Of a DNA stretch of 58,555 nt, positions 2,739-41,716 are shown piece by piece. Every line of letters starts with the position of its first letter. The stretch's first letter is position 1. A program made the translations under genes and the position numbers. A model generated the notes under the pieces. That model did not search any database. It was not told the DNA's origin and saw only the letters and a program-made list of their open reading frames with translations. Source of the stretch: Candidatus Melainabacteria bacterium (lineage in GTDB: Bacteria; Cyanobacteriota; Vampirovibrionia; Obscuribacterales; Obscuribacteraceae); the NCBI GenBank assembly GCA_003151275.1, contig PLXC01000040.1, forward strand, positions 1-58,555, read 5' to 3'.

Positions 2739-2767
2739 AACCTCTGCATCGCGGACAAATTGCAATT

Positions 2768-6596: not shown

Positions 6597-9500
6597 GTGA
6601 AAGGAGAATCGAGATGGCTGCTGAGACACCGTTTGAAATTGGACTGGTTTTGTCTGGTTAGAAGCCAGCTCGATACCCTTTCTGGCAATCTGGCCACCTG
6701 GATCAAAACCAATAATCCTGGCGCCGCCACTGATGACATCCTTGGCGGAAGACAAATCATTCCGATCACTCTGCCAATCACATTCCCTGCCACTCTACCC
6801 AATCAGGCAGTTGGGGATGTGCCAACCGAGTTTACTGGCGACTTCTCGACCGCCTACAAAGTCACGATTCGTGTTGAATACACCATCGGTGGTATCGACG
6901 TCACTCTTACTTCAGAGCAACTGTGTGGACATAGGCTTACGTTCTTCTTCACTCCCTCGGGACCTAATTTTGTTCCTGTGGTGGCTTTAGATGGCATACC
7001 GGTCGCCACTGGAACTGCACAGTCTGCCAACATTACCTGGTCGGTTGATCTTACCGTTACGCACAATGCTTTTGCGACTCCACTCGTTCAAGCATCGGCT
7101 CCGTTAATTGTTGGTCCCAATCAGGGATTCGTTACCGGACAAGATTATTACGCGATTGTGTCTTCGTTCGGTCCTACGGGAAAAGGAATGTTTGATTATC
7201 ACAACGCTCTTCAGCTGCAAAACGAGTTCGATGCTGGTGGTTGGAGTCCAACACTGGTTGATGAGCCGGCCCTTGGTGAACGTTTGGTTGCGATGTGGTC
7301 TAACTACGCAGCTCAAGTATCGCGTGTGTCTGAACTTGCAGATCGCATGATAGATAAAGTGAGTTACAACTATCACACGATTGGTTTGGCTGGTTACTCG
7401 GTTTACGGTGCGCCGTATTTCTCGGGAATGAACCTGTCAGGTGGCCTAGGCGGCGGTGCCGACCTCAATAGCACTCCCAATCCCCTTGCCATCAGCGCTG
7501 GCCTTAACGGCGGCATGCATGGCTATGCGCTCGAGATGTTGGCTGTACAGCAACTTCTTAGTGGTGGAAATCTTGCAGTTTCGACTACGCGAGACTTGGA
7601 CCTCGCAAACACTGCAGGCACGAAAATTTGGAAAGGAACGCCTAGCACTTGGACAAGTACCGTTCGTCCAGCACTGACAGGCTATAGCGGTTCTGACCTT
7701 AGCAATATTGACTTTAATGTCAGTTCCGGTTCGAATGTTCTGTTGGCTCAGAATGCTGGACAAACATTTGACGGACACTGGACACTGACTGGATATACCC
7801 TTTTTGGTAGTAACAGCGCTATCGGAGTTATTCTCGGAGCCTACGCTGGTGTTGATGGCAAAGGTCCGACAACTGGTGGAAAAATTCCTCCCAGGACAGG
7901 CACAGATCCCACAAAAAACGATCCGATTAATTTTCGAACTGGCGACTATTACTATCGTCGTGAAGACATGAAAATTGGGAGTGGTGAAGATCCATATTCG
8001 CTCACGTTTACTCGCAACTATAACTCCGCTTCTCGTTTGACTAACAGTCCGCTTGGACTCGGATGGAAACATAATTGGGCGACATCGGTTCAAAAGTCTA
8101 GTGATGGATTCGTTGCCCTTGGTGCTCAATCCCCACTTAGCGCTGTAGCTGCCATTGCAGAGATCTATGTCGTGTTAGATCTTCTCAGCGACACCGCCCT
8201 GCCTGTCGATAAACTCGTTATCGCTTCATTGTGCAATCAGTGGTGGGTTGATCAACTTACTGGCAATGTTGTCACGGTGAGTTTGGCAGATTACGATCGC
8301 CAGTATGTGCTTCTTCCTGATGGCAGTTACATTGGATTGGACGCCTCCACTCTAACACTAGCTGCAGGAGCCTACACTCTTACAACTCCACAGAAAGTTA
8401 TCTATTCGTTTAACGCCTCTGGACAGCTAATTTCTATCGCTTACCCTTTTGGAGTCACCATAACTCTTACTTACACGAGCGGTCTGCTGACCTCCATTTC
8501 AAACGGGCTTGGCCGCACTCTCACACTCCACTACACAGGCAATTACCTCACGAGTGTCACTGATGGCACAGGACGTAGTGTCCAGTATGCGGTCGATGTT
8601 AGCAATAATCTAACAACGTTTACGGATGCAAACTCCAAAGCTTTTACATACCAATACGATCAACCTGGCCGTATGACAAAGTACTTCTTGCCTGCTAATC
8701 CGACTGTCGCAATCGTTAGCAACGCTTATGACTCATTGAGTAGAGTGCAGACTCAAGCGAACGCTCTCAGTCAAGTGTGGACATATTATCTAGCCGGCTC
8801 CCGTTCCGAAGAGATAGATCCTGTGGGCAATAGCTCTGTGAATTACCTAAATTCCTATGGGTCAGTCCTTCGTGAAATCAACGCGCTGGGACAGGAGAAT
8901 AAGAACGAATTTGATGGGCTTGGCAGAATGACAACCACAACGTTGCCTGAAGGCAACAAGCGCTTGTGGACTTACGATCAATCAAACAACATCCTGACGG
9001 ATACATTTGTTGCAAAACCTGGTTCGTTATTGCCCAACCGAGTCTTGACGTACACTTACGACCCCACCTACAACAAGGTGAAGACGTTTACGGACGCTAA
9101 ATCAAATGTCTACACGTCGAATTACGACTCCGCGACCGGCAACCGACTCTCTCTTGTTAAGCCTATGGTTGGAGGCTTGACTCCTCAGAAAACGTGGACA
9201 TATAACAGTCGGGGTCAAGTTCTCACTTACACGGACGAAATGTCCATGATTATAAATCAGACGTATGATCCGGTTTTTGAAGTTATGTTGACTTCGACTG
9301 TCGACTATGGAACTTCGCCACATCTGAATCTAGCTTGGAGTATTGGATATAACTCAGTCGGGGATCAAACTACCGTAACAAATCCTCGACTTAACCAAGT
9401 TACATTCGAATATGACACGGAACGTAGACCCACCAAGAAAACTGACCCAGCTGCATTCGCTTATATCACCAAAATTGGTTATGACGATAATGGCAACAAG

Positions 9501-11531
9501 ACATCCTATCAGCGGCAGTTGAGCGGTACGCCAACCTGGCAGACTTATGCTTACAGCTACTCTCTCACTGGCAAGCAAACTCAATTGATCGACCCTCTGA
9601 ACAACATACTCACCTGGACCTTTGATCAGAATGATCGTCTCCAAAGTTTTACAGATGCAGTGGGACACACTTGGCACTACGATTACGATGCTAGGAGCTT
9701 GCCCAGTTCAATAACCGACCCAACAGGTAAAGTCAGCGAAAGCATGACATACACTTACAATGGTTTGATATCGACCGTAACTGATGCAAGAGGAAACATC
9801 CTTGCCACTACATACGATGGCTTCGACAAACCAGCTAAAACGATCTATCCAGACACGTCGTTCGAAGAAAATCAATCTTACGATTTGAATGGTCAAGTTC
9901 TTGTTTTTCGAGCTAAGTCTGGAAACACTATCACGATGACTTACGATACTTTGAACCGCATCTCGACCAAATCGCCAACGGGGCAACCGGTTGTGACTTA
10001 TGGTTATGATCTGGCCGATCGCCAAACAAGCGTAACCACACCAGTGGTTTCAGGTCACCCTGAATCTGGAACTTTCCAATTCTTCTTCGATGCCGCAGGA
10101 CGCAAATACAAGGAGACTGCTCCCGACGGTAAGAGCGTAGTACACCAGTTGGATGCGAATGCAAACGTCACGCGGATTACCCACCCAGATGGATATTACA
10201 TTACTCAAAACTTCGATAATCTCGATCGACTGACCGATATATTCCTAAATGGTGCTGCTACTGCCGCTGCCCATATGGACTATGATTTTCTTTCGAGACG
10301 TAGCAAGCTAACGTATGGCAATGGTGCCGTAGTAAATTCAACCTATTCGGACAATGACGACTTAACACAGCTCAGTCACGTATTTAGTGGTATTGCGTCA
10401 GTTGCATTTTCCTACGGATATAACGCTTCGCACCAGGAAAACAGCCGAATTGTCACTGATTCTACCTTTGTTTGGCATCCAGCGTCAGTAGCAGCGACGC
10501 AGTATGGATCTGCAAATAACGTGAACCAGTATCCAACAGTTGGCGGCATATCCTATACATACGACGGCAATGGTAATCTTAGCGGGGATGGGGTTTGGAC
10601 GTTTACTTATGACACGGAAAACCACCTCACTTCTGCCACCAAAACTGGTGTTGGCTTGACTTATGTTTATGACGGAATTCACCGGCAGATTCAGAAGTCT
10701 CTCGCTTCCGGGGCAAAAACGCGCTACTTCTATGATTCATGGCAGCGTTTGGTCGACTACGATGGAAGCAGCGGTGCCCTGCAGGCTAGGTATGTATACG
10801 GATCTGGTCTGGACGAACCTGTGATTTCTGTCGACAATACCGGAACAATTACCTACCTCCATGGGGATAAGCTTGGCTCGATTGTCGCTACCACCAATGC
10901 TTCTGCTGTGGTCACTAACAAATCAGCTTTTTCGCCGTACGGCGAGGGCACTACTACTGGTGTGTCGATCGGATTCAACGGGCAGCGATTCGATAGTGAT
11001 GCTGGACTTTATTACTACAAAAGGCGCTTTTACAGCAGTTTAATCGGACGCTTTCTTCAGAATGATCCTCTCGGTGCAGCGAGCGGAGATCTGAACACAT
11101 ATGCTTACGTTTTGAACGACCCTCTCAATCATAACGACGAGCTGGGCCTGGAAATGAGCAACTTAACAAACATTGGAAGACCGCCAGCCAACGGCATCTC
11201 TACGCCGCCAAACTGCCCGATTCCAATAACTCCACCTTTGTGTCCAACCCCCCCAGGATGCCCAGATCCATCTCCGCCAGGTTGTACCCCAATCTCACCG
11301 CCACGTTGTCCGAGCACGCCACCATTCTGTCCGAAACCGCTCACGCCGCCGGACTGTCCGCAACCGGCAACGCCGCCCGAGTGCACGCCGCCTACACCGC
11401 CGGCTTGCATGCCGCCGCCAACGCCTCCGGGTTGTCCGCAGCCTACACCGCCGGACTGCCCGTTGCCAACACCACCTAATTGTCCGATTCCAATAACTCC
11501 ACCTAGCTGCAAGCCCCCCAAACCCCAATAA
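6597..11531 (+). CDS. RHS/YD-repeat protein with Cys-rich [S/T]PPxC tail
   Basis: 1644 codons from a GTG. Residues ~1-420 are an unassigned beta-rich region. Near 440-500 is the RHS-type opening (DPINFRTGDYYYRREDM, LTFTRNYNS, LGLGWKHNW). Many YD repeats follow (YDxxGR/LxxxTD types), then the RHS core (LGSIVATTN, FSPYGE, YYYKRRFYSSLIGRFLQNDPLG, NTYAYVLNDPLNHNDELGL, ending ~1518). RHS proteins form shells that enclose a variable C-terminal toxin. Here that part is a 125-residue tail with thirteen [S/T]PPxC motifs, and LanC and LanB follow. The start is doubtful: the good ribosome site AAGGAG serves ATG 6614 in another frame, which stops after 15 codons (TAG 6659), so the true N-terminus may be frameshifted or lie further in. 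No signal peptide seen. Confidence 0.85.
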   Translation: MKGESRWLLRHRLKLDWFCLVRSQLDTLSGNLATWIKTNNPGAATDDILGGRQIIPITLPITFPATLPNQAVGDVPTEFTGDFSTAYKVTIRVEYTIGGIDVTLTSEQLCGHRLTFFFTPSGPNFVPVVALDGIPVATGTAQSANITWSVDLTVTHNAFATPLVQASAPLIVGPNQGFVTGQDYYAIVSSFGPTGKGMFDYHNALQLQNEFDAGGWSPTLVDEPALGERLVAMWSNYAAQVSRVSELADRMIDKVSYNYHTIGLAGYSVYGAPYFSGMNLSGGLGGGADLNSTPNPLAISAGLNGGMHGYALEMLAVQQLLSGGNLAVSTTRDLDLANTAGTKIWKGTPSTWTSTVRPALTGYSGSDLSNIDFNVSSGSNVLLAQNAGQTFDGHWTLTGYTLFGSNSAIGVILGAYAGVDGKGPTTGGKIPPRTGTDPTKNDPINFRTGDYYYRREDMKIGSGEDPYSLTFTRNYNSASRLTNSPLGLGWKHNWATSVQKSSDGFVALGAQSPLSAVAAIAEIYVVLDLLSDTALPVDKLVIASLCNQWWVDQLTGNVVTVSLADYDRQYVLLPDGSYIGLDASTLTLAAGAYTLTTPQKVIYSFNASGQLISIAYPFGVTITLTYTSGLLTSISNGLGRTLTLHYTGNYLTSVTDGTGRSVQYAVDVSNNLTTFTDANSKAFTYQYDQPGRMTKYFLPANPTVAIVSNAYDSLSRVQTQANALSQVWTYYLAGSRSEEIDPVGNSSVNYLNSYGSVLREINALGQENKNEFDGLGRMTTTTLPEGNKRLWTYDQSNNILTDTFVAKPGSLLPNRVLTYTYDPTYNKVKTFTDAKSNVYTSNYDSATGNRLSLVKPMVGGLTPQKTWTYNSRGQVLTYTDEMSMIINQTYDPVFEVMLTSTVDYGTSPHLNLAWSIGYNSVGDQTTVTNPRLNQVTFEYDTERRPTKKTDPAAFAYITKIGYDDNGNKTSYQRQLSGTPTWQTYAYSYSLTGKQTQLIDPLNNILTWTFDQNDRLQSFTDAVGHTWHYDYDARSLPSSITDPTGKVSESMTYTYNGLISTVTDARGNILATTYDGFDKPAKTIYPDTSFEENQSYDLNGQVLVFRAKSGNTITMTYDTLNRISTKSPTGQPVVTYGYDLADRQTSVTTPVVSGHPESGTFQFFFDAAGRKYKETAPDGKSVVHQLDANANVTRITHPDGYYITQNFDNLDRLTDIFLNGAATAAAHMDYDFLSRRSKLTYGNGAVVNSTYSDNDDLTQLSHVFSGIASVAFSYGYNASHQENSRIVTDSTFVWHPASVAATQYGSANNVNQYPTVGGISYTYDGNGNLSGDGVWTFTYDTENHLTSATKTGVGLTYVYDGIHRQIQKSLASGAKTRYFYDSWQRLVDYDGSSGALQARYVYGSGLDEPVISVDNTGTITYLHGDKLGSIVATTNASAVVTNKSAFSPYGEGTTTGVSIGFNGQRFDSDAGLYYYKRRFYSSLIGRFLQNDPLGAASGDLNTYAYVLNDPLNHNDELGLEMSNLTNIGRPPANGISTPPNCPIPITPPLCPTPPGCPDPSPPGCTPISPPRCPSTPPFCPKPLTPPDCPQPATPPECTPPTPPACMPPPTPPGCPQPTPPDCPLPTPPNCPIPITPPSCKPPKPQ
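11202..11510 (+). repeat. Thirteen [S/T]-P-P-x-C motifs in the RHS tail
   Basis: Codons 1536-1638 of the RHS gene hold TPPNC, TPPLC, TPPGC, SPPGC, SPPRC, TPPFC, TPPDC, TPPEC, TPPAC, TPPGC, TPPDC, TPPNC and TPPSC. Every Cys in the tail is preceded at exactly -4 by Ser or Thr; Cys-to-Cys spacing is 6-9 residues. A 21-nt stretch is identical at 11217-11237 and 11484-11504, a sign of expansion by DNA duplication. Ser/Thr plus Cys with three residues between is the size of nisin ring A, and enzymes able to make such rings are encoded next door. Confidence 0.95.
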
Positions 11532-11586
11532 GGCAAGGTAGCGTAATGACACTGCCCTTGGTGTAATGACAGTGTTTTTGACACAG

Positions 11587-11614
11587 AAAGGGCGAACTTC
11601 GGTTCGCCCTTTTT
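11587..11614 (+). terminator. Strong terminator between RHS and lanC
   Basis: AAAGGGCGAAC (11587-11597), a TTCG tetraloop, then GTTCGCCCTTT (11602-11612) running into T: an 11-bp perfect stem. It ends 25 bp before the lanC ATG on the same strand, so lanC-lanB are transcribed by leakage or from a promoter I cannot see, which would give much more RHS than enzyme. Confidence 0.9.
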
Positions 11615-11639
11615 TCACCTAATGAATATGGAGAACAAA

Positions 11640-12959
11640 ATGACGAATACAAAGTGGCACTCAGTATTGGATGACAAACGACGCAAAAAAGGTATCGAAA
11701 TCGTCCGGTTAATAGCGGAACGCTTTCGCGATGACGAGCTGTTGGTTGAGGCGATCGCGTCCTGTACGGACCGGAATGAATTTTTTTACTGGGAAGGCGA
11801 TGGACGTCTTGGACACTTACTTTTCTTCGAATATCTTGCGCAGTGCACGAAAGACAAAGAATATAAAAAACACTTTGACAAGCTTCTCGCAGAACATTTA
11901 TCTCAACCAGGATGGTTAGCTAATTCACCGCTGTCTTTATCATCCGGCCTTTCTGGCGTCGCTTTAGCGGTCGAATGTGCATCGGATAATGGGAGAAACT
12001 ACCAAAGAGTGTTGTTCGGTATCGATTCTGCCCTTGCCGCAAGGATTGATTCGATTCTATCAACAGTAGAGCGGTATCAAGATCACTGTGCTCTTCCCGA
12101 CTACGATGCAATATCAGGATTGGCAGGAATTGGTACTTACCTTTTGATGAGGCCTGACGGCGCGGACAATCGAGCGCAGATTGAAAGAATTCTAAAAGTT
12201 CTCATCGACCTAAGCCAATCAGTTAATGGAATCCCGAAATATAAGACACCTCGTAATCTGCTCGATAAATGGTTCGCAGCAGATGAACGGTTTCAACATG
12301 GTCTTCTTAATCTCGGTCTTTCGCACGGAATTCCGGGACCTCTAATGACACTCTCCTTGGCAAAACTGAATGGTTTTGTATCAGAGGGCTTGGACACTGC
12401 TCTCGAGACCTTGGCCGACATTCTCATAAAAACTGCGCAACGTGACGAATGGGGAATTAATTGGGCATCTGCTGTGCCATTATCAGAGGATCAGAACTCC
12501 TTTGTTATGGGGCCGCTCTATACACGTACCGCTTGGTGCTACGGAAGCCCAGGAGTAGCTTCTGCACTATACACTGCGGGCAGAGCGCTTGAGAATTCGA
12601 CGTATAAGAAATTCGCTGTCGATTCGATGCGTGATGCCGTGGCGCGACCTACAAAGTACAGATGTCTCGAAGGATCTGCTTTTTGTCACGGAAGAGCCGG
12701 TCTTTTGCAAGTTCTTCTGCGCTTTCACAATGCTACACATGACCAGATTTTCGCTGAAGCCGCAACGCAGATCTTTGATGAGATTGTGAATCTTTTTAGC
12801 CCAGAATTCGCGTTCGGTTTTAAAAACTACCATAAGGAATCAATGGACGGAGATGACGATCCACGCCTCTTTGATGGAGCTGCAGGAACAGCATTGGTGT
12901 TGGCTGCTGCCGTGTTTGATGTAGAACCAAGGTTTGACAGAATTTTCCTACTTTCTTAA
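11640..12959 (+). CDS. lanC: LanC-like lanthipeptide cyclase
   Basis: LanC enzymes are zinc proteins that add Cys thiols to dehydrated Ser/Thr, closing (methyl)lanthionine rings. Seen here: the repeated Gly motifs of the alpha-barrel (SLSSGLSGVALA, AISGLAGIGTYL, LSHGIPGPLM, YGSPGVASALY, CHGRAGLLQVLL, LFDGAAGTALVLA) and the zinc ligands Cys in WCYGSPG and Cys-His in FCHGRAG. The length is normal for the family. The frame opens at 11622, but GGAG sits 6 nt before the ATG at 11640, the likely start. It lies directly after the RHS gene with its [S/T]PPxC tail and 11 bp before lanB. No precursor peptide gene of usual type, LanT transporter or LanP protease is seen nearby. Confidence 0.9.
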   Translation: MTNTKWHSVLDDKRRKKGIEIVRLIAERFRDDELLVEAIASCTDRNEFFYWEGDGRLGHLLFFEYLAQCTKDKEYKKHFDKLLAEHLSQPGWLANSPLSLSSGLSGVALAVECASDNGRNYQRVLFGIDSALAARIDSILSTVERYQDHCALPDYDAISGLAGIGTYLLMRPDGADNRAQIERILKVLIDLSQSVNGIPKYKTPRNLLDKWFAADERFQHGLLNLGLSHGIPGPLMTLSLAKLNGFVSEGLDTALETLADILIKTAQRDEWGINWASAVPLSEDQNSFVMGPLYTRTAWCYGSPGVASALYTAGRALENSTYKKFAVDSMRDAVARPTKYRCLEGSAFCHGRAGLLQVLLRFHNATHDQIFAEAATQIFDEIVNLFSPEFAFGFKNYHKESMDGDDDPRLFDGAAGTALVLAAAVFDVEPRFDRIFLLS

Positions 12960-12970
12960 GGGATCAGTAG

Positions 12971-15900
12971 ATGACACAGAAACGTAAATACCGGTGCCTC
13001 GATTCAGTATTGGTGCGTACACCAACACTACCGATCGAAGAAAGTTATCCACACATTGATTCACTTTCTGAAACGGTTAAGACAGCTATTGCAATAGCTA
13101 GCCCGTCTTTATTTGCAAGACTAGAACACAAACCAGCCGTTTCGGATGTTGTTGAAAAAGTGGCCCGTTATACAAAGAGAATGGCTACGAGACCAACACC
13201 ATATGGTCTATTCTCCGGATCTTCGTTGGCACGGCTGGGAACTGAAACCGACATAGCTCGAGGAATAAACACGCGGACGCACACAAGGCTTGACATGGAG
13301 GTGGTACTTCAGCTAGCAGAAAAGCTTGAAGCCATGCCATGCATTAGGGAAAATCTTACTTTGTATAGCCACACCAATCTATTGGTAGCTTCAAACCGAA
13401 TTTGGGTGGAGGGGCTCTTCGGCGAGGAAAGTTCTATTGCAATAAAACAGCACCCAGCGCTGCTTCGAGCTTTTGAAGTTGCCCGTACTGGTAGCACGCT
13501 AGCGAGCTTGGTTGCCCTTTTGGTGAGGGAATTCGGTTTCAACAAGGAGCGTGCTCTCCAAATTTGTAACCAGCTCTGCGACTTAGGGATGTTAGTTACC
13601 GCTGTTAAGTTGGCACTTCAGGGACCCAATCCGGCCGTAGAGATTGCTCGGTTGATTCAATCCCTAGCGGGCGCGAAAGATATCTATCAAAAGTTGGAAT
13701 CATTTTTAGCTGAAGCGGAGTCATGGGATCAAATCCGAGAAAAAACGTCCGATTCTTATCTTGCTTTCGTGGAAAGGATTTCGGGAACATTCGGACAAAG
13801 TCTTATGCCGTGCCAAATTGATTCTGTTCATGAACTGCATGGGAAGACACTTTCCACGGCTATAGCAGATGAAGTTGCAGCTGCCTCAGAGATTGCTATT
13901 TCATTGAGTCCTGTGGATGCCAGCCTGGTACCTTATGCCTCGGCGTTTCGGCGCAGATACCAATATGACAGAGAAATCCCAATTTTGGAGCTGCTGAGTC
14001 CTCGTTTTGGCTTAGGGTCACCATACCAGAGGTGTTATAGATCGCTCTACCTTTCAGAGCATCAAATACGAGATGAGATGCTTTCTACTCTAGCTTCAGA
14101 GGCGCTGGAAAAACAACGCCGCGCTATTACATTGACCAATGATCAACTAAGCATCCTAGCGTGCAAAGATCTGAACACTTGTAGTGCTCCGAGCTCTTTG
14201 GATTTATCAATCGGTGTTGATTCGGATAGTCGGACATCCATTGATAATGGCGATTTCCGGATCATTTTATCGACACGTACCGGCGATATTGGAGCGGGTA
14301 GGATGATGGGGCGCTTCGCACATATCTTGGGAGACGAAGCCCTCGATCATCTAGGTTCAATCGTTGAGATTGAAAACCAACAAACCACCGATATAATCGC
14401 AGACATAGGATTTAGTCCTCAAATTCCAAGATTCTCTAATGTCACCTTAACTCCATCGCTTAGACGGTTTTCAATTGTATCCGGCTGCTGTCCAACAAAA
14501 AAAACAATCAACATTCCCCTACAAGAGATTGTAATTGGCTTGGATTATGAAAACAGGTTTTATGCACGTTGGACTCGCACAGGGCAAGTAATCCAAGCTC
14601 GTAATAATGGCATGCTTGGTAAAACGCTTATGCCTACTGCGATTCAATTTCTAAATGATCTAACTCTCTCTCGAATAGCCACTCTTTACCAATTTGACTG
14701 GGGTAAAGCTGAAAAATTTCCTTTCCTGCCCACAGTTATTGCTGGTAAGACCGTATTAAGGGTTGCCCAGTGGAGGCTAGAAACATTGTGGAACGCTTGT
14801 GGAAAGAATATCTCATGTGACTTTTCAGTCCAGCTCCATGAGTGGATGAAAACTTGGAACGTCCCGTCCCTAATTCGCTATGCGGCCAATGTTCATGATG
14901 AAGGATTGCTCCTATTAGATCTCACAAACAAATTAGACCTTGAACAGCTCAAAACTTTGCTAAAGCGGAATAAAGGCGCAGGATTAGTTTTCGAGTATTT
15001 TGATACAAGCCGCTGGCATTCAGTAAATGATCAACATTATGAAACTGAGTTCGTCTTCAGTTTGGTGAAAAACAATGCTCTCAATGAAGTAACAAACCAT
15101 ATACCGGTAAAGCCGCTCGAACAGCTTCAGAAGGGCGATTATTTACAAGTGCCCGGTCGTAACTGGCTGTATCTCAAATTGGATTGTTCACCGCTAATGC
15201 AGGACGAACTATTGCAGCAATTGCGGTCTTTTGTTGGAAGCTCTGAAGTAGCCGATGCCGTGACGCGTTGGTTCTTTGTTCGCTACTGCGACTCAGAGGA
15301 ACACTTACGGGTTAGGTTTTTGATACCAGAGGGGAAATTATATTCTTGTTTTTTGCCATCTGTTCTCAAATTTGCTGCGAAGTTGGTCGATGACAGCATT
15401 TCTTCAAAATTTTCGATCGACACGTATGACCGCGAGGTAGAAAGGTATGGTGGAAAAGCAGGTATTGAACTGGCTGAGGAGCTATTCTGCTTAGATAGTC
15501 AGTTGGTTTTAGACCTTATCAGTTTTGAAAATGTGAACCGATTAAACAGATCGTTAATCGCTGCGGTGTCCATAAATGCAATCCTTGACTCCTTTGGGTT
15601 AGACACAGGAACAAAGGTTGCTTGGCTACAATCCTATGCTTATAAGAGTGATAAGAACTTAGCCTCTACTGCGTATCGAAGCCTAAAAAATCAACTCTTT
15701 GGTTTGGTTTCAGGAACCTCTGACATTGACTCTAATTACACAAATCTACTAACCACTCTTAAACTAATCAAACCTAACTTTGCACAGGTTGCATCAGCAC
15801 TTAACTTCGCCGAAACAAAAAAACTACTTACTTTGCCAGTCTGGAGAATTACTGAAAGTATAGTGCACATGCACTGTAACAGGCTTTTGGGAACAGATCG

Positions 15901-15973
15901 AAATCAAGAAAGGCTTGCTCGAACTCTTCTCTTGAACACACTTAAGGCAGTCCAAGCACGCACGAGGACCTAG
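12971..15973 (+). CDS. lanB: LanB-type lantibiotic dehydratase (full length)
   Basis: Class I LanB proteins glutamylate Ser/Thr of the substrate using Glu-tRNA and then eliminate glutamate to give Dha/Dhb. The 1000-aa product has the N-terminal Lant_dehydr domain (ARYTKRMATRPTPYGLFSGSSLARLG near residues 75-95) and the C-terminal SpaB_C elimination domain (LYLKLDCSPLMQDELL, WFFVRYCDSEEHLRVRFLIPEG, DTYDREVERYGG near 725-840). It is therefore a complete, not split, enzyme. It starts 11 bp after lanC with AAGGG upstream, and a terminator follows, making lanCB one unit. The most likely substrate in the window is the RHS tail. Confidence 0.9.
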   Translation: MTQKRKYRCLDSVLVRTPTLPIEESYPHIDSLSETVKTAIAIASPSLFARLEHKPAVSDVVEKVARYTKRMATRPTPYGLFSGSSLARLGTETDIARGINTRTHTRLDMEVVLQLAEKLEAMPCIRENLTLYSHTNLLVASNRIWVEGLFGEESSIAIKQHPALLRAFEVARTGSTLASLVALLVREFGFNKERALQICNQLCDLGMLVTAVKLALQGPNPAVEIARLIQSLAGAKDIYQKLESFLAEAESWDQIREKTSDSYLAFVERISGTFGQSLMPCQIDSVHELHGKTLSTAIADEVAAASEIAISLSPVDASLVPYASAFRRRYQYDREIPILELLSPRFGLGSPYQRCYRSLYLSEHQIRDEMLSTLASEALEKQRRAITLTNDQLSILACKDLNTCSAPSSLDLSIGVDSDSRTSIDNGDFRIILSTRTGDIGAGRMMGRFAHILGDEALDHLGSIVEIENQQTTDIIADIGFSPQIPRFSNVTLTPSLRRFSIVSGCCPTKKTINIPLQEIVIGLDYENRFYARWTRTGQVIQARNNGMLGKTLMPTAIQFLNDLTLSRIATLYQFDWGKAEKFPFLPTVIAGKTVLRVAQWRLETLWNACGKNISCDFSVQLHEWMKTWNVPSLIRYAANVHDEGLLLLDLTNKLDLEQLKTLLKRNKGAGLVFEYFDTSRWHSVNDQHYETEFVFSLVKNNALNEVTNHIPVKPLEQLQKGDYLQVPGRNWLYLKLDCSPLMQDELLQQLRSFVGSSEVADAVTRWFFVRYCDSEEHLRVRFLIPEGKLYSCFLPSVLKFAAKLVDDSISSKFSIDTYDREVERYGGKAGIELAEELFCLDSQLVLDLISFENVNRLNRSLIAAVSINAILDSFGLDTGTKVAWLQSYAYKSDKNLASTAYRSLKNQLFGLVSGTSDIDSNYTNLLTTLKLIKPNFAQVASALNFAETKKLLTLPVWRITESIVHMHCNRLLGTDRNQERLARTLLLNTLKAVQARTRT

Positions 15974-16016: not shown

Positions 16017-16052
16017 GAGCGTCACTGTAGATGGTGGCGCTCTCTTTCTTTT
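16017..16052 (+). terminator. Terminator after lanB
   Basis: GAGCGTCAC (16017-16025) pairs with GTGGCGCTC (16034-16042, one G-U) over an 8-base loop, followed by a T-rich run. Confidence 0.8.
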
Positions 16053-16408: not shown

Positions 16409-17989
16409 TCATTTCATACAATCTAGCATTTTCACAACAGCGGCGGTCTGTCCTTCTTTTATCGCTTTTATGAGAGCCTGGTTCGAACAAAGCAAATTAG
16501 CGGAACTCTTGGTTTGTTTCGTAATCTTGGCAAAATTTCTGAGCGAAGCGTCCAACAACTTGTCTAATTCGGCCTTCGTTCCGTGCAGCCTTCCTTCAAC
16601 CGCTACTTCGTTTGGCCCATCGACATTTTCCAAGATGTCTGATATTACAAACTCCTTTGAGAGTAGACAACCTGATAAGTACGCGGCACCTTGCATGATA
16701 TATCGCAAGTGCAGCGCATCAAAGCACCTGTCTTCATCATCTGCAGTTGCTACAGCCAAAACAACAAGACTATTAGGAGGAGGTTGTAGTAATTGGAGGG
16801 TAGGCTCTGCCCAGGTCCAACCGGCTTCCGGGTGCCAATATTCAACAAGCCAATGCTCAAATAAACGCGGACTCCAAACAGGTAAGTGAGATAGCGTTCG
16901 TGCTGGTATACCATGCGCCCGCAGAAGCGCGGCTGCAAGATTAGCATTGCTTGTGCACGATGGAGCACTAGTCAGCGCACTTTTTGCATCGAGCGAAGTG
17001 CACTTTGCACCCGTTCCTTGGTTGGTCGATGTGAAAGCAATCACTTTCCGAACAAAGCTTTCAACATCACCAATGTCCTTAGCTAACTCATCTGACTTTG
17101 AGCGAATTTGCACATCAGAACTTTGCACACAAGCTGTGCTTCGCAGCCACTGAACAGTCGTTGACGGTGCACTCGGATTAACTTTGGGAAGTTCTTGTTT
17201 TTTACGACCATTGACCAGCACAAGTGCATCCCAGCGAACAATCGCGCCTCTATCCGGAGGACTTACAGTAGCCTCGCAAAGCCAATTTAGACCGTCTTTT
17301 CGTCTGTAAATATGGTAGTCAGTCAATGCAGAGGCCGGTTCCGAGCTACACTCAAACGTAAGTGGTATTTGTTCTCTGTAGACACCTGGAATTGGAAATG
17401 TCACTGTTCCAACTGCTCCTGTTTTCAGAGGCTTTACAGCAGCTCTATAATGGGCGTTTAGAATCTTTGGAACTGCCTCATCCCCATATTGCGCTCCCGA
17501 TAACAGACTGCTGTCAACTTCTTCAAATGTCCCTGATTTAAGGCTAGGTCTGCTTATATCAACGGGATGTTCTTCCGTGTTAATTATCCAGAGTCCAAGC
17601 AGAGTAGTTCCATCTGGGAGCACATAGCTTTCTTTGAATTGTTGCCAATCACTTTCTACCGCATCGATTGTTGTCGAAGACAACGACAAGAGACTTTGTT
17701 GAGCATCATAGGTGCTGGCTTTTATGGTGACCTTCTGATTTGATGTCGAGCCTTTTATATAACAAGAAAAAGTCAATTTGCGATGAGTGGGAAGTCCAGC
17801 AATTGAAACTGCAATGTGCGACCACTCGTCCTGCGCTGATCGAACACCGTGCAGTTGAACTATTCTTTCAGAATGGCCAGCATCAGGTTCAAGGACTTTA
17901 GCGTCTCTTAGAGCCCATCCTCTCGCATTGTTTGATAGTTTCGGATTGGGAAGCAGCTCAGTAATTTCGTTTTTTGATTGAGCAAACAT
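16409..17989 (-). CDS. Transglutaminase-like protein, ankyrin tail broken
   Basis: Residues ~10-170 form a beta-sandwich, carbohydrate-binding-like module (GWALRDAKVLEP, LTFSCYIKGSTSNQKVTIKA, WQQFKESYVLPDG). The transglutaminase core is near 320-420: Cys in APSCTSNANLAAALLRAHGIPARTL, His in FEHWLVEYW, and GWTWAEPTL, where the usual Asp of the triad appears as Glu. The C-terminus begins an ankyrin repeat (ALIKAIKEGQTAAVVKMLDC) and stops. Ankyrin-like sequence resumes in another frame downstream (NPNDINN, ALGLKPVAFSIYRHYVAIV; about 16290-16405), so a frameshift has cut the gene. AAGGA lies before the ATG. It is convergent with lanB; no signal peptide is clear. Confidence 0.75.
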   Translation of the reverse strand: MFAQSKNEITELLPNPKLSNNARGWALRDAKVLEPDAGHSERIVQLHGVRSAQDEWSHIAVSIAGLPTHRKLTFSCYIKGSTSNQKVTIKASTYDAQQSLLSLSSTTIDAVESDWQQFKESYVLPDGTTLLGLWIINTEEHPVDISRPSLKSGTFEEVDSSLLSGAQYGDEAVPKILNAHYRAAVKPLKTGAVGTVTFPIPGVYREQIPLTFECSSEPASALTDYHIYRRKDGLNWLCEATVSPPDRGAIVRWDALVLVNGRKKQELPKVNPSAPSTTVQWLRSTACVQSSDVQIRSKSDELAKDIGDVESFVRKVIAFTSTNQGTGAKCTSLDAKSALTSAPSCTSNANLAAALLRAHGIPARTLSHLPVWSPRLFEHWLVEYWHPEAGWTWAEPTLQLLQPPPNSLVVLAVATADDEDRCFDALHLRYIMQGAAYLSGCLLSKEFVISDILENVDGPNEVAVEGRLHGTKAELDKLLDASLRNFAKITKQTKSSANLLCSNQALIKAIKEGQTAAVVKMLDCMK

Positions 17990-18243: not shown

Positions 18244-18269
18244 GTAGAAACTAGTGATAATATCATTAT
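18244..18269. repeat. 26-bp recombinase-linked repeat, copy A
   Basis: A 26-bp sequence (GTAGAAACTAGTGATA followed by ATATCATTAT) is identical to 19356-19381. It holds inverted arms TAGTGATA/TATCATTA one base apart and overlaps the stop codon of recombinase 1. It may be a binding site of the recombinase. Confidence 0.7.
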
Positions 18270-19210
18270 TTTATATATTCTCGTTCGAGTAGACTTTCTA
18301 GAGCGACCGCCTTATCTTCAGCTGACGGAAGAGTATAGCGGCGTGTCGTGTTCAAGCCTTTGTGACCGGCAATGTCGGCAACTAGGACTAGGTCGTTTTT
18401 GGCACGCACCAAATTTGTTAGGAGTGTATGGCGAAGTATATGCGCTGATAAAGCTATTCCGCAGTCATACCCGAGCTTTCGTACAATCAGATCGATACCA
18501 CCAGGGAGCAATTTCTTGCCTTGAGCATTGAGAAAAAACGATTTCGACTTGACTCGACCGATAAATTTCTCCTGTCGCTCATCAAGCCACCCTTGTAAGG
18601 CTTCACGGACCTTGGAATTGAGCGGCACTTCCCTGTATTTATCGTTTTTGCCGCTGCGAATAATCACTCGTTGCTTGCGGCCCGTTATATAAACATCGTC
18701 GTTTTCTAAAGCAGATAATTCGCCGATGCGCAGGCCGGTGTAAAGGAGAAGCGTCAAGATGGCTCGATCCTTGGCTCGACGTGTGCGCTCAATGGCTCGG
18801 AGGAGCTTCTTTTGCTCTTGCTTGCTTAGAGCTCGAGGTGCTTCATTGGGCAGGTCTTCACGGGTGACTTTGGCTGGTCCCAGAGTTAAGAAGCCATAGA
18901 AGTTGTCTACTGCAGCCAGATAGGCATTTAAGCTAGATGGTTTTAACTTGCGGGTGTGCTTCAAGTATTTCTTGAAGGCAGTGGCAATGCGGACGCGGTT
19001 CTCTCGTGTCAGTGCTTCGTCGTCGCCATCTAATTGACCTTCTCGAAACGCGAGAAACACCTGAACACGGGCTGAATAGGCTCTTTTCGCATGAATGGAT
19101 AAAGGTTGCTTGGTTAACCAATCGGTGTATGACTTTAGCTCAGTATTTTTTGTTTTGGATTTTTGCTGTTTTGTGATCACTAGAATTTCGCCAAATTTCT
19201 CTAGTGTCAT
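18266..19210 (-). CDS. Tyrosine recombinase 1 (resident copy)
   Basis: Site-specific tyrosine recombinase of about 310 aa with an N-terminal SAM-like core-binding domain (residues ~25-110) and catalytic residues Arg161 (YTGLRIGEL), His257 and Arg260 (SAHILRHTL), His283 and Tyr292 (GHKGLNTTRRYTL). It is over 90% like recombinase 2. The ATG at 19210 lies inside the transposon end (TGTCAT read backwards), so the insertion supplied this start. The product homology begins only at LVITKQ, whose GTG is the probable original start. Without the transposon, its 5' end would lie close to the palindromic site at 23106. It is outside the transposon and may be a remnant of an older related element. Confidence 0.88.
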   Translation of the reverse strand: MTLEKFGEILVITKQQKSKTKNTELKSYTDWLTKQPLSIHAKRAYSARVQVFLAFREGQLDGDDEALTRENRVRIATAFKKYLKHTRKLKPSSLNAYLAAVDNFYGFLTLGPAKVTREDLPNEAPRALSKQEQKKLLRAIERTRRAKDRAILTLLLYTGLRIGELSALENDDVYITGRKQRVIIRSGKNDKYREVPLNSKVREALQGWLDERQEKFIGRVKSKSFFLNAQGKKLLPGGIDLIVRKLGYDCGIALSAHILRHTLLTNLVRAKNDLVLVADIAGHKGLNTTRRYTLPSAEDKAVALESLLEREYIK

Positions 19211-19238
19211 TTTCAGAAGTTCTGTTCAGCAGATTTCA
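19205..19238 (+). repeat. Transposon left inverted repeat (TSD at 19200-19204)
   Basis: Starts TGTCATTTTCAGAAGTTCTG. Mismatches to the right end are only at positions 5 and 16. The outer flank is TCTAG. Confidence 0.95.
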
Positions 19239-19355
19239 GAAGTGCTGTTCAGCGACATCTTGTGTCACTTATTCAGTAACTTATTCTATGTGCCATAAAC
19301 CTCCTAATAGACCGCACTCTATCTGGTCGCCTGGCGCCTTCTCTTTTTTTGTTTC

Positions 19356-19381
19356 GTAGAAACTAGTGATAATATCATTAT
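19356..19381. repeat. 26-bp recombinase-linked repeat, copy B
   Basis: Identical to 18244-18269, 1112 bp away and just downstream of recombinase 2. The similarity of the two copies continues leftward (CCTGGCGC...CTCTTTTTT). Inside the transposon it is a candidate resolution site used by recombinase 2. Confidence 0.7.
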
Positions 19382-19392
19382 CTTGTATAAAT

Positions 19393-20334
19393 TCATTCGA
19401 GCAGACTTTCCAGTGCCACTGCCTTATCCCCAGCTGACGGAAGGGCATAGCGGCGTATCGTGTTCAAGCCTTTGTGACCGGCAATGTCGGCAACTAAGAT
19501 CAGGTCGTTTTTGGCGCGCACCAAATTTGTGAGCAGCGTGTGCCGAAGTATATGCGCCGATAAAGATATTCCGCAGTCATTGCCGAGCTTTCGTACAATC
19601 AGATCGATACCACCAGGGAGCAATTTCTTGCCTTGAGCATTGAGAAAAAACGATTTCGATTTGACTCGACCGGTAAATTTCTCCTGTCGCTCATCAAGCC
19701 ACCCTTGTAAGGCTTCACAGACCTTGGAATTGAGCGGCACCTTCCTGTATTTATCGCCTTTGCCGCTGCGAATAATTACCCGCTGCTTGCGCCCCGTTAT
19801 ATAAACATCGTCGTTTTCTAAAGCAGATAATTCGCCGATGCGCAGGCCGGTGTAAAGGAGAAGCGTCAAGATGGCTCGATCCTTGGCTCGACGTGTGCGC
19901 TCAATGGCTCGGAGGAGCTTCTTTTGCTCTTGCTTGCTTAGAGCTCGCGGTGCTTCATTGGGCAGGTCTTCACGGGTGACTTTGGCTGGTCCCAGATTTA
20001 AGAAGCCATAGAAGTTGTCTACTGCAGCCAGATAGGCATTCAAGCTAGATGGTTTTAACTTGCGGGTGTGCTTCAAGTATTTCTTGAAGGCAGTGGCAAT
20101 GCGGACGCGGTTCTCTCGTGTCAGTGCTTCGTCGTCGCCATTTAGTTGTTTTTGTCGAAAGTGGAGAAACACCTGAACACGGGCTGAATAGGCTCTTTTC
20201 GCATGAATAGATAAGGGTTGCTTGGCTAACCAAACTGTGTATGGTTTGAGATCACTATTTTTGGTTTTTGATTTTGGTTGTTTTGTTATCACTAGAATTC
20301 GCCGAATTTTGATACATGTTATTTTCACTATCAA
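19393..20334 (-). CDS. Tyrosine recombinase 2 (transposon-borne)
   Basis: 313-codon frame with the same catalytic Arg, His-x-x-Arg, His and Tyr (TGLRIGEL, SAHILRHTL, GHKGLNTIRRYAL) as recombinase 1. The frame opens with a TTG overlapping the tniB stop; a GTG at 20328, or the conserved GTG of LVITKQ, are alternatives, and translation is probably coupled to tniB. By position it replaces the serine resolvase TniR and probably resolves cointegrates, as TnpI does in some Tn3-family elements (inference). It ends a few codons earlier than recombinase 1. Confidence 0.9.
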   Translation of the reverse strand: MIVKITCIKIRRILVITKQPKSKTKNSDLKPYTVWLAKQPLSIHAKRAYSARVQVFLHFRQKQLNGDDEALTRENRVRIATAFKKYLKHTRKLKPSSLNAYLAAVDNFYGFLNLGPAKVTREDLPNEAPRALSKQEQKKLLRAIERTRRAKDRAILTLLLYTGLRIGELSALENDDVYITGRKQRVIIRSGKGDKYRKVPLNSKVCEALQGWLDERQEKFTGRVKSKSFFLNAQGKKLLPGGIDLIVRKLGNDCGISLSAHILRHTLLTNLVRAKNDLILVADIAGHKGLNTIRRYALPSAGDKAVALESLLE

Positions 20335-21254
20335 CCAATTTGGAGTTCGCGTTCAAATGCTTTACGTCGCTCGGTCGGGGATTGATACAGAGTAAGCCCA
20401 AAAACTTTCGCACTCATTCGTTCTTCGCCGGTTTTGATCGCCGTTATGGCTGCCGTCGACAAAAAGGTTGCAATCTCCCCGATGGTCCCCTCGGTGCGAG
20501 CCAGAATGTGTCTCGCCATTTCTGGAGTTCCTATGTCCGATGGACGACGAAGAGGCAACACTGCTTCAAAGCTTGCCAACAATGAAAATAAATCATTCCC
20601 TTCCTTCCACCGAGGAATTGAGACCGGTTCGAATCGGTTCTCCAATTGATCGTCGAGTCTTATTGCCAAATACGCATCTGTAGTGCCAATGCCAACTATC
20701 GGTATGCGAAGTTCGTTGCCAAGAAAGCGTAACGTATTCAAAAACTCGCGTCTGACATCGGTTTGGCCTGCAAGCACATTGTGCAATTCATCTATGACAA
20801 GCATTTTTGCTTTCACCAAACGCAATCTGTTCAATGCAGTCTGCTCCAACTCAGCCGTCCGGGTTACCCGAACTATTGCTCCAGTACTCTTCATGACCAT
20901 TGAATAGAATCGGGCTGGAGACGGATCTGGTGGCATTTGTAGAACGACAAGTGGCACGCGAAGATCATCGAAAGCATCGAGAGGATTTTCAATCTCTATA
21001 GCGGGATACCTGCGCCGAAACTTCTCTATGATCATTGATTTGCCATTGTTTGTCGGCCCGACAATCAAGAGATTTGGCATCCGTTGCCTGGTCGGACACC
21101 TTACAAGTTCCTCGAGCCGAGACAATGCTTTTTTCGCAACAGGATAGCCGATCCACTTAACTGCCTGGATTTGCTTGATTCTGTCTTTGTCGGACAGCAC
21201 TGCAACAGCTTTGCATTCCTTTGTTAAATGCGATAAATCATGCTTCTTTCCCAA
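20331..21254 (-). CDS. tniB: TniB-like transposition ATPase
   Basis: AAA-type ATPase of the TniB/TnsC group, which forms the target complex and activates the DDE transposase. Walker A is GPTNNGKS (residues 66-73) and Walker B MLVIDE (151-156) followed by LHN; an IGIGTTDAY sensor region follows. The length (307 aa) is normal. TTG start 3 bp after tniA, with GAGGAG at the end of tniA as ribosome site. Lies between tniA and the recombinase in one operon. Confidence 0.92.
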   Translation of the reverse strand: MGKKHDLSHLTKECKAVAVLSDKDRIKQIQAVKWIGYPVAKKALSRLEELVRCPTRQRMPNLLIVGPTNNGKSMIIEKFRRRYPAIEIENPLDAFDDLRVPLVVLQMPPDPSPARFYSMVMKSTGAIVRVTRTAELEQTALNRLRLVKAKMLVIDELHNVLAGQTDVRREFLNTLRFLGNELRIPIVGIGTTDAYLAIRLDDQLENRFEPVSIPRWKEGNDLFSLLASFEAVLPLRRPSDIGTPEMARHILARTEGTIGEIATFLSTAAITAIKTGEERMSAKVFGLTLYQSPTERRKAFERELQIG

Positions 21255-21257
21255 GTG

Positions 21258-22892
21258 TCACCACTCCTCAATCTCATCGAACGGCTTTGCTTTTGCTCTT
21301 CTGTAAATCTGTGCCGGTGCGACGTTCTTATGCTCTATCTGCTGAGCAAGATGACTACGGCGTGCCTTGTCTCTTCTGGCCTGCTTAGTTTCCTTTTCCG
21401 CACCATCGACAATGGCACGCATTTTCAGAATCATCCGGAAGATAGCAACTTCATCTACTTCTGCTCTCCCGCTTTTTCTTAGTATCTCTACTGCTTTTCG
21501 ATGCTCCCAAAGAGTCACCGATGGATTTGAAATGCACCGATACGGCAACTCAAGATATTGATTGCTTAGGGGATCCAAGGCCCATACGCAGCTTATATCA
21601 CGAGGGTCACGGCGAATAATAAATTGTCCCAATTTATCCCGCCTTGCAATCCACGGTTTGAGCGTATCCGCATAGTATGAGATGTGGTCAATCATAAACC
21701 CAGTTCGTCCGATCCTCCTTTTGATAACCGGCAAAAAGTCGATCAAGAAAGCTTTTTCGTCTCGAACGAAAGCAATATTTTCGAGGGAAACATTTTTTCT
21801 CCAGAAACTGGCTGGAGGCATCTTCAGCGTTTTATGAATGTTTTTGTGATAGCCGGCGACCGTCAAAACAAGCCATTTTTCCAGCTCCTGCAGAGTTAAC
21901 ACAGCGTTGCCTTCGGAGTCATACTTGCCCCGCTCTCGAATGTTGGAGAATGTCGTTCCCGGCAATTCGTGCGACATTTTCATTGCTGTTCCGATCACGC
22001 GTTCAATAATCCCGCCAAAATGCGGTTGTTTCTTTGGACGAAAATCTTGTTTGATCCCGTGCTGCTCACATCCTCGTTCAAGTGCCTCGCTATGAAACTC
22101 TCGCCCGTTATCTGTATGGATAGATTTGGGCTTACCAAACATTGGCCATTCGATGTCTTGAAGTCCGAGGCGTAGCAAGTAACCCTCTTTTTTGCAGACC
22201 GTATGCGCAAGGCAGAGGCCAACAGAAGTCGCCGAAGGTGCTTCGAGCGTTACTAGCATCCCGACAATACAGCGTGTAAAAACATCGATAGCTAACGTCA
22301 ATGTCGGACGTCCGATTGACTGTCGAGAACTCTCATCTACAACGATGACATCAACAGGAGAATGGTCCATCTGTACGATGCTCAAAGGAGCCTCAGCGGC
22401 CGGAGTCTCTCCAATTACAGGATTGAGCCTCTTTGTCGCGTCATATCCTTCCCTACTGTAAGTGACTCTTTTGGGATCGAGCTTTCCGATTCGGGCTTCA
22501 ACCGTATTACGGGCGGGCGCCTGATATCCAAGCTGGACACAGCGGATCCTTATTTCTCGAACAATTGCGGCAATTGAACGTCTCTGTCGACTCAGGTAAA
22601 ACGATTCAATGACATCACCGACAATACCTTCCACTTCGACTTGTATTCTCGGTTTTCCTTTACCTCCGGACGATGTCCTCGGAGCCAAGTCAGTTAAAAG
22701 CCCATCGCCACTTCTGCATCTGGCAATGAGCTTATAAACGGCTCTTGTTGAAACGCCCAGCCTCTTTGCTGCTGTCTCCGCTTCACTCCGAGTTACGATT
22801 TGCTGACTTGCGAGCGGTACAATTATCGCTGCTCTATGCTTTGCCTTTGCCCATGCCCTTTCCGAGAGCGTTAGCAATCCTTCTTCGCGCAA
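21258..22892 (-). CDS. tniA: TniA-like DDE transposase
   Basis: Transposase of the TniA/TnsB (Mu-like) family with an rve core. An N-terminal helix-turn-helix region (TRSEAETAAKRLGVSTRAVYKLIARC) is followed by the catalytic triad Asp176 (IVQMDHSPVD), Asp261 (IHTDNGREF) and Glu297 (FGGIIERVIG), then a Mu-type C-terminal beta barrel (GRTGFMIDHISYYADTLKPW). 544 aa, typical. The start is a TTG with a weak ribosome site; a nearby internal TTG is possible. It is the first gene inside the right end, about 160 bp from it. Confidence 0.93.
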   Translation of the reverse strand: MREEGLLTLSERAWAKAKHRAAIIVPLASQQIVTRSEAETAAKRLGVSTRAVYKLIARCRSGDGLLTDLAPRTSSGGKGKPRIQVEVEGIVGDVIESFYLSRQRRSIAAIVREIRIRCVQLGYQAPARNTVEARIGKLDPKRVTYSREGYDATKRLNPVIGETPAAEAPLSIVQMDHSPVDVIVVDESSRQSIGRPTLTLAIDVFTRCIVGMLVTLEAPSATSVGLCLAHTVCKKEGYLLRLGLQDIEWPMFGKPKSIHTDNGREFHSEALERGCEQHGIKQDFRPKKQPHFGGIIERVIGTAMKMSHELPGTTFSNIRERGKYDSEGNAVLTLQELEKWLVLTVAGYHKNIHKTLKMPPASFWRKNVSLENIAFVRDEKAFLIDFLPVIKRRIGRTGFMIDHISYYADTLKPWIARRDKLGQFIIRRDPRDISCVWALDPLSNQYLELPYRCISNPSVTLWEHRKAVEILRKSGRAEVDEVAIFRMILKMRAIVDGAEKETKQARRDKARRSHLAQQIEHKNVAPAQIYRRAKAKPFDEIEEW

Positions 22893-23919: not shown

Positions 23920-24327
23920 CTAGCTTCTACGTAAGACCAAATGCACTTTTTTCGTCACCGGATCAATCTGCTTATCGGCAACAGAAAATCCTTGCGATGC
24001 TAGTTTACTGACGACTGCATGTTCAGCGTATCCCTGACATACTTTTCCTATCCAGTCGCTGCCAAGCAACTGCTGATCGTATTCTGAAACTATCGCTTCG
24101 TAAGTGCCTTGAGGGGTTAATTTGAAGCCGATGTCGTTGCTGACCTCGCTGATATATTTGCGCCGAATGATAACTTCGGCTTCTTCTGGACGGCGATCGC
24201 CTTTGTAGCCATAAAGAAATTGTGCTGTTGCGTTGTCTTCAATGTCGGTATAGCCAAGGTCGCAGAGAGCCTTCAGCAGCGAATCCTTGTCAACGATTTG
24301 TGTTTCGATTTTACTGTAATGACTCAT
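23920..24327 (-). CDS. DUF1257/Ycf35 family protein
   Basis: 135 aa beginning [26 protein letters not shown], the hallmark of Ycf35/DUF1257 proteins found in cyanobacteria, plastids and scattered bacteria. Biochemical role not established. It overlaps the end of the Ycf46-like gene by 4 bp and ends the operon DUF2997, radical SAM, Ycf46, DUF1257, a combination seen repeatedly in other genomes, so the proteins probably act together. Confidence 0.85.
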   Translation of the reverse strand: MSHYSKIETQIVDKDSLLKALCDLGYTDIEDNATAQFLYGYKGDRRPEEAEVIIRRKYISEVSNDIGFKLTPQGTYEAIVSEYDQQLLGSDWIGKVCQGYAEHAVVSKLASQGFSVADKQIDPVTKKVHLVLRRS

Positions 24328-26527: not shown

Positions 26528-26531
26528 AACC

Positions 26532-41706: not shown

Positions 41707-41716
41707 TTAGCTCCCC

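What the first reader, a model, noticed from the sequence alone, without database searches (positions are those of the whole stretch)
11154..15973. RHS protein tail as a lanthipeptide substrate: thirteen [S/T]PPxC motifs next to LanC and LanB
Seen: the C-terminal tail of a 1644-codon RHS protein, just where RHS proteins carry their variable toxin, has 13 Cys, each preceded at exactly -4 by Ser or Thr as [S/T]-P-P-x-C. The next two genes are a LanC cyclase with intact zinc ligands and a full-length LanB dehydratase. Known: LanB dehydrates Ser/Thr and LanC joins them to Cys; three intervening residues is the nisin ring A size. Inferred: the RHS tail is converted into a string of up to 13 (methyl)lanthionine rings, perhaps inside or released from the RHS shell. 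The conventional small precursor peptide and LanT/LanP are not seen. I know of no described RHS-lanthipeptide fusion.
Basis: partly seen in the sequence, partly recalled or inferred. Interest (0 to 1): 0.96.

Follow-up and report, generated by a model that had tools for sequence, protein, structure and literature searches.

The report
RHS shell protein with lanthipeptide tail
A large RHS shell protein ends in a tail of thirteen identically spaced Ser/Thr-to-Cys motifs, encoded just before two genes for enzymes of the lantibiotic ring-making kind, so the tail is predicted to be stitched into a chain of thioether rings, which would be a chemically modified payload in the place where RHS proteins usually carry a toxin domain.

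Summary
Observation confirmed. The RHS frame (6597-11531) ends in a 125-residue Pro-rich tail with 13 Cys, 13 of 13 as [S/T]PPxC (11 Thr, 2 Ser). LanC (11622-12959) and full-length LanB (12971-15973) follow. Silent codon positions of the units vary while Ser/Thr, both Pro and Cys are fixed: selection, not recent copying. A diverged RHS protein, P0015 (51% identical over 1,400 columns), has the same kind of tail: 11 Cys, 9 with Ser/Thr at -4, three of them where Pro-Pro is lost. It lies on a 72,236-base contig, as does P0001, the LanB sister to the window's (100/100); that this is one contig is inferred. None of the other 56 RHS hits and none of 87 fetched LanB loci has three such motifs. I conclude that the tail is most likely the LanB/LanC substrate. 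Ring formation, release by the RHS autoprotease and toxicity are inferred. Cautions: this RHS gene lacks 276-299 N-terminal residues present in two relatives, a hairpin terminator lies between RHS and lanC, and no nisin-type FNLD leader motif is present.

The parts
6597..11531 (+). RHS protein, 1644 codons; N-terminal part seen in relatives is missing
   Evidence: RHS_repeat, DUF6531; TIGR03696 core at residues 1446-1518; fold matches Rhs cores in the PDB; truncation
6613..6660 (+). 15-codon out-of-frame start after AAAGGAG, across the point where RHS homology begins (6657); likely rearrangement joint
   Evidence: sequence; homology start; no second copy in the window
11064..11138 (+). RHS autoprotease motif with the Asp pair 1490 and 1514, reading PLNHNDELGL where the published motif is PxxxxDPxGL
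   Evidence: both Asp invariant in the 36 rows of alignment A4; motif from passages of PMC8765631
11154..11528 (+). tail of 125 residues, the likely lanthipeptide core region
11202..11510 (+). the thirteen [S/T]PPxC units
11586..11613 (+). 12-bp hairpin with UUCG loop running into a U run: intrinsic terminator or attenuator between RHS and lanC
   Evidence: fold of 11532-11645, -35.6 kcal/mol, z -3.2
11622..12959 (+). LanC cyclase (alternative start ATG 11640 after GGAG)
12971..15973 (+). full-length LanB dehydratase
16017..16042 (+). terminator-like hairpin after lanB
   Evidence: 12 such sites found, 14.2 expected in shuffles, so weak on its own

Best explanation
The C-terminal tail of this RHS protein is most likely the substrate of the adjacent LanB and LanC, which would dehydrate the Ser/Thr of each [S/T]PPxC unit and join it to the Cys four residues on, giving up to 11 methyllanthionine and 2 lanthionine rings in a row. 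In this reading the RHS protein is an outsized precursor: the folded shell would take the place of the leader peptide, the RHS aspartyl autoprotease would take the place of the leader protease LanP by cutting before the tail, and the closed shell would hold the modified peptide as it holds a toxin domain in other RHS proteins. The hairpin between RHS and lanC would let substrate be made in excess over the enzymes. Shown by sequence: the tail, its 13 of 13 spacing, the constraint on it, the intact enzyme genes, the second diverged RHS tail. Inferred: modification, its timing relative to shell closure, release, delivery, toxicity.
For: 13 of 13 Cys with Ser/Thr at -4, silent positions varied. 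P0015: 9 of 11 (binomial 3e-8 at the background of 17 of 179), and 3 of its 5 Cys outside TPPxC still have Ser/Thr at -4 (0.007). TPPGC/TQETC, SPPRC/TEPKC, TPPFC/SIKIC are aligned pairs. P0015 and LanB P0001 are each on one contig of 72,236 bases; window LanB and P0001 are sisters, 100/100, in a tree of 25. LanC Cys306, Cys355, His356, Asp162, His235 align with NisC Cys284, Cys330, His331, Asp141, His212. LanB covers both dehydratase domains. Other RHS hits with three or more [S/T]PPxC: 0 of 56. Asp pair of the autoprotease present. The tail has no predicted fold (pLDDT mostly below 50).
Against: No FNLD-type leader motif, though NisB needs it (PMC7296275 passages). The RHS gene lacks 276 residues of P0015 and 299 of a Methylomonas relative at its N-terminus and has no evident good start signal in frame, so this copy may be poorly made. 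A terminator separates it from lanCB. Two of 11 Cys of P0015 lack Ser/Thr at -4. LanC and gene order on the 72,236-base contig could not be looked at. The second Pro of the autoprotease motif is Glu here. Only two tails of this kind were found, and no DNA of the second.
Confidence: 0.66

Rival explanations
1. The tail is a structural polyproline rod whose Cys form disulfides or bind metal, and LanB and LanC act on something else.
For: 42% Pro (53 of 125); no fold predicted; no FNLD leader.
Against: Ser/Thr at -4 is not needed for disulfides, yet it is kept in 13 of 13 units and in 9 of 11 of P0015, also where Pro-Pro is gone; the two tails go with sister LanBs.
Confidence: 0.12
2. LanB and LanC serve a conventional small precursor encoded elsewhere, and their place behind the RHS gene is chance.
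For: A terminator separates RHS from lanC, so lanCB may be a unit of their own; the whole genome is not held.
Against: Of 20 small frames listed around lanCB none looked like a precursor, by eye; RHS tail and sister LanB recur on contigs of equal length.
Confidence: 0.08
3. The unit once worked as described, but this copy is a rearranged remnant that is no longer made.
For: The 5' end of the RHS gene is missing and an unrelated start with a good ribosome-binding-like site runs out of frame across the joint.
Against: The frame stays open for 1,624 codons after the joint and lanC and lanB are intact.
Confidence: 0.1
4. LanB and LanC use the tail for links between chains, making a stapled surface polymer instead of rings within one chain.
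For: Repetitive, extended tail; no transporter family matched among 31 of the 56 frames of 120 aa or more that were scanned with Pfam.
Against: The fixed -4 spacing predicts links within each unit.
Confidence: 0.04

Closest known systems
Class I lanthipeptide biosynthesis (nisin: NisA, NisB, NisC)
   Same: Full-length LanB and a LanC with the aligned zinc ligands; Ser/Thr-x3-Cys as in nisin ring A, and Thr-Pro as in nisin ring B (both recalled)
   Different: Substrate is the end of a 1644-residue RHS protein, not a short peptide; no FNLD box; no LanT and no adjacent LanP found
RHS effectors of the T6SS type (RhsA, Tse15, RhsP)
   Same: Shell fold (best match 8qja_D, E 3.3e-57), RHS core domain, autoprotease Asp pair
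   Different: No toxin domain recognised in the tail and lanCB where an immunity gene would be; N-terminus truncated
Methylomonas sp. UP202 plasmid RHS (P0072)
   Same: 34.9% identical over 92% of the window's RHS
   Different: Ordinary non-repetitive C-terminus followed by a small hypothetical gene that could be its immunity gene, transglutaminase-like N-terminal domain
Proteusins (PMC10858898, start of abstract in search listing only)
   Same: RiPP precursors that defy the short, unstructured leader
   Different: Not RHS shells; comparison not tested here

Membership tests
Class I lanthipeptide system | LanB with glutamylation and elimination domains | tested here: met
   Lant_dehydr_N 3-649/649 and Lant_dehydr_C 1-253/255; HLRVR, ERYGG, HMHCNR aligned to NisB (their catalytic roles are recalled)
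Class I lanthipeptide system | LanC with zinc ligands Cys, Cys, His | tested here: met
   Cys306, Cys355, His356 aligned to NisC (ligands from passages of PMC7296275)
Class I lanthipeptide system | short precursor gene (30-120 residues in precursor mining, PMC7268733 passages) near lanBC | tested here: not met
   20 small frames with 2 or more Cys between 4300 and 21000, none precursor-like by eye
Class I lanthipeptide system | FNLD-type leader motif | tested here: not met
   No FNLD or FxLD in the last 190 residues
Class I lanthipeptide system | LanT transporter and LanP protease in the cluster | tested here: inconclusive
   31 of 56 frames scanned: no ABC transporter match; one subtilase at 40261-41706, about 24 kb away
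Class I lanthipeptide system | (methyl)lanthionine rings in the product | not testable with these tools
   needs mass spectrometry
RHS polymorphic toxin | YD-repeat shell and RHS core domain | tested here: met
RHS polymorphic toxin | C-terminal autoprotease motif | tested here: inconclusive
   Asp pair present and invariant in 36 rows, but DPxGL reads DELGL; the stretch between the two Asp is modelled with low confidence
RHS polymorphic toxin | variable C-terminal toxin domain | tested here: not met
   no Pfam or NCBIfam match in the tail
RHS polymorphic toxin | immunity gene directly downstream | tested here: not met
   lanC and lanB follow instead
RHS polymorphic toxin | N-terminal delivery or secretion part | tested here: not met
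   missing in this copy; homology starts at residue 21

The most novel reading that the evidence does not exclude
RHS proteins can carry an enzyme-modified natural product as warhead: a 13-ring polythioether peptide made on the protein's own C-terminus by LanB and LanC, kept harmless inside the shell and cut free by the RHS autoprotease, so that one shell replaces leader, leader protease and immunity of a lantibiotic.
Probability: 0.4. Interest if true: 0.95.

Novelty: new variant of a known kind. Interest (0 to 1): 0.85.

Why it matters
It would join two weapon systems usually treated apart: RHS polymorphic toxins, whose payloads are protein domains, and lanthipeptides, whose precursors are short peptides. 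Precursor mining that looks for 30-120-residue frames (passages of PMC7268733) would miss it. It makes two questions testable: whether a LanB can act on the end of a giant folded protein, and whether an RHS shell can hold and release a modified peptide. It also offers a natural design of thioether-stapled polyproline repeats.

Tried and rejected
Relatives. LanB alignment scan of genome contigs: 79 loci kept of a capped list, best identity 32%; viral contigs: 8 loci. Frames with three or more [S/T]PPxC in these 87 loci: none. RHS-like matches in 2 of the 87 (L022, L046), about 6 kb from LanB, without the motif. LanB in plasmids: 107 records, none at 60% identity or more; P0001 in phages: 2 weak records. 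Tail pattern in viral contigs: 14 stretches; 11 have a frame with two or more [S/T]PPxC. The strongest, L098 with 10 units of SPPCC type, is the antisense of a repetitive coding frame, and no LanB or LanC match is in any of the 14. RHS-tail alignment in viral contigs: no relative. Tail alignment against about 5.8 billion proteins: 876 candidates, none at E <= 1 (biased composition may hide relatives). Tail model in four genomes: one weak match, E 0.004 (L103); its Pro-rich frame holds no [S/T]PPxC. Tail model in 398 genomes of the phylum of G001: none, at most 10 candidates scored in each listed genome, and the tool warns that an empty answer without a positive control shows nothing. LanC in the same 398: one match, the centre genome itself, chosen because it carries LanB, so 0 of 397 others. 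Host: not settled. Megablast of window 1-50000 against plasmids: no match (the rest not searched). Nearest named RHS relatives are Methylomonas, Variovorax and Burkholderia plasmids at 33-35%.

Rejected: recent unit duplication as cause of the regularity (silent positions differ); a reading-frame artefact (P0015 has the same protein motif).

Literature (open-licence library only). RHS repeat + lanthipeptide, YD repeat + lanthionine, Rhs + lanthipeptide: 0 papers each. Rhs + RiPP precursor + toxin: one fungal paper, listing and start of abstract only. Proline-rich lanthipeptide terms: one review, listing only. Polymorphic toxin + lanthi: 12 listed, passages read of PMC3482391 alone: it names lantibiotic-type kinases as toxin domains; I saw no modified-peptide payload in the passages. 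Other listings. Passages only of PMC7268733, PMC8765631, PMC7296275. One of 10 searches was not used.
Full report
What is there. The RHS frame runs 6597-11531. After the RHS core (TIGR03696, residues 1446-1518) comes a tail of 125 residues: 53 Pro, 14 Thr, 13 Cys, 6 Ser. All 13 Cys lie in [S/T]PPxC. The x position is free (N, L, G, G, R, F, D, E, A, G, D, N, S) and the linkers between units are one to four residues. LanC starts 90 bases after the RHS stop and LanB 11 bases after the LanC stop. A 12-bp hairpin with a U run lies between RHS and lanC (11586-11613); the consensus scan did not list it, but listed one after lanB (16017-16042).

Is it more than chance? The units are repeats, so the shuffle test (0 of 100,000) overstates the case. 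Better: the third positions of the fixed codons vary (Thr/Ser codon G 5, A 4, T 3, C 1; first Pro G 7, A 4, C 1, T 1; second Pro A 5, G 4, T 3, C 1; Cys T 7, C 6), while the first and second positions are constant apart from A or T in the first base of Thr/Ser. The regularity is held by selection. In the last 220 residues of 56 other RHS proteins, 17 of 179 Cys have Ser/Thr at -4.

A second tail. A search with residues 1440-1644 of the RHS protein gave 58 proteins: the window's own (P0014) and 57 others. One of the 57, P0015, has three or more [S/T]PPxC (it has six); the other 56 have none. Its tail has 11 Cys, 9 with Ser/Thr at -4. At the background rate the binomial chance of 9 of 11 is 3e-8, and of 3 of the 5 Cys outside TPPxC 0.007. 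In the alignment TPPGC faces TQETC, SPPRC faces TEPKC and TPPFC faces SIKIC: Ser/Thr and Cys are kept where Pro-Pro is not. Two Cys of P0015 lack Ser/Thr at -4. P0015 is 50.9% identical to the window's RHS over 1,400 columns and 32% over 345 columns of the N-terminal part. P0015 is on one contig of 72,236 bases, and so is P0001, the best LanB match (43%); that it is the same contig is inferred from the length. In a tree of 25 LanBs the window's and P0001 are sisters at 100/100; P0002 and P0003 join them at 100/100, and no RHS hit has their contig lengths. LanC and gene order on the 72,236-base contig could not be looked at.

The enzymes. LanC Cys306, Cys355 and His356 align with the NisC zinc ligands Cys284, Cys330 and His331, and Asp162 and His235 with Asp141 and His212 (residue roles from passages of PMC7296275; an offset of six between chain and NisC numbering is inferred). 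LanC matches Pfam LANC_like but passes no NCBIfam cut-off. LanB matches both dehydratase domains nearly end to end, passes TIGR03891, and keeps HLRVR, ERYGG and HMHCNR, aligned with HIRLR, ERYGG and HVHNNR of NisB; the catalytic roles of these are recalled.

The shell. AlphaFold2 on residues 446-1644, with 35 of the 57 other RHS hits as alignment, gave mean pLDDT 80.1 and pTM 0.75; 654 of 1,199 residues are at 90 or more. Below 50 are model residues 58-111, 128-135, 1049-1058 (between the two autoprotease Asp) and nearly all of 1075-1199, the tail. Best PDB matches are T6SS-linked Rhs cores (8qja_D, E 3.3e-57, TM by query 0.65, 17% identity). So the shell is ordinary and the tail has no predicted fold; the model does not say whether the tail lies inside. 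The Asp pair is present (1490, 1514; invariant in 36 rows). The published motif PxxxxDPxGL (PMC8765631 passages) reads PLNHNDELGL here and PLNNTDPMGM in P0015, so cleavage is plausible and not assured.

The truncated start. Of 13 plasmid records that cover at least 80% of the RHS protein, 12 start matching at residue 21 or 25 and one at 151. P0015 has 276 and the Methylomonas relative 299 residues more upstream, with a transglutaminase-like domain. P0015's upstream part has no clear match elsewhere in the window. Across the joint lies an out-of-frame 15-codon frame after AAAGGAG (6613-6660). The simplest reading is a rearrangement that removed the 5' end. The frame stays open for 1,624 codons after it. 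Whether this copy is made is unknown; the two contigs listed for P0014 may come from one sample.

Mechanism. I hold that the tail is the LanB/LanC substrate (0.66). For it: fixed spacing under selection, two diverged tails, sister LanBs, adjacent intact enzyme genes, no other precursor seen among 20 small frames. One ring per unit would give 11 methyllanthionines and 2 lanthionines. Shell as leader, autoprotease as LanP and cavity as protection are inferences from RHS biology (PMC8765631 passages). When the enzymes reach the tail is open: before closure, or outside the shell, where teneurins carry their toxin-like domain (same passages). The hairpin fits the excess of precursor over enzymes in lantibiotic operons (recalled), but could also mean that lanCB have a promoter of their own. 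Against it: no FNLD box, the truncated start, the Glu in the autoprotease motif.

Known or new? Both halves belong to known families. Their joining did not appear in my searches (0 papers; nothing of the kind in the listings and passages). It is not filed as a standard class I lanthipeptide system, because a short precursor and an FNLD leader were tested and not met, nor as a standard RHS toxin, because toxin domain and immunity gene were tested and not met. It would work like both.

Noticed in passing
window 6597-6660: RHS homology begins at 6657; an unrelated out-of-frame start (15 codons after AAAGGAG) lies across the joint, which suggests a rearrangement.
   Followed up: partly
window 18266-20334 (-): Two tandem, very similar tyrosine recombinases of 314 and 313 residues beside a TniB and a Mu/TniA-type transposase gene (20331-22892).
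   Followed up: no
window 23920-28895: Cassette with DUF1257, an AAA ATPase, a radical-SAM-like protein, a GrpE-like and an Hsp70-like protein.
   Followed up: no
window 43077-51414 (-): LodA-like lysine oxidase with a haem-oxygenase-like domain, an FAD/halogenase-like protein, a GMC oxidoreductase and a ferritin-like protein in a row.
   Followed up: no
window 1374-2765 (-): Protein with a T6SS Tle1-like phospholipase domain and a weak LysM match.
   Followed up: no
window 16409-17989 (-): Transglutaminase-like protein, convergent with lanB; the RHS relatives carry a transglutaminase-like domain that this RHS lacks.
   Followed up: partly
window 40261-42670 (-): Subtilase next to a DNA/RNA non-specific endonuclease; LanP proteases are subtilases too (recalled), but this one is about 24 kb from lanB.
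   Followed up: no
window 36843-37505 (+): KfrA-like plasmid DNA-binding protein, a hint that the window may be a plasmid.
   Followed up: no
   Followed up: no
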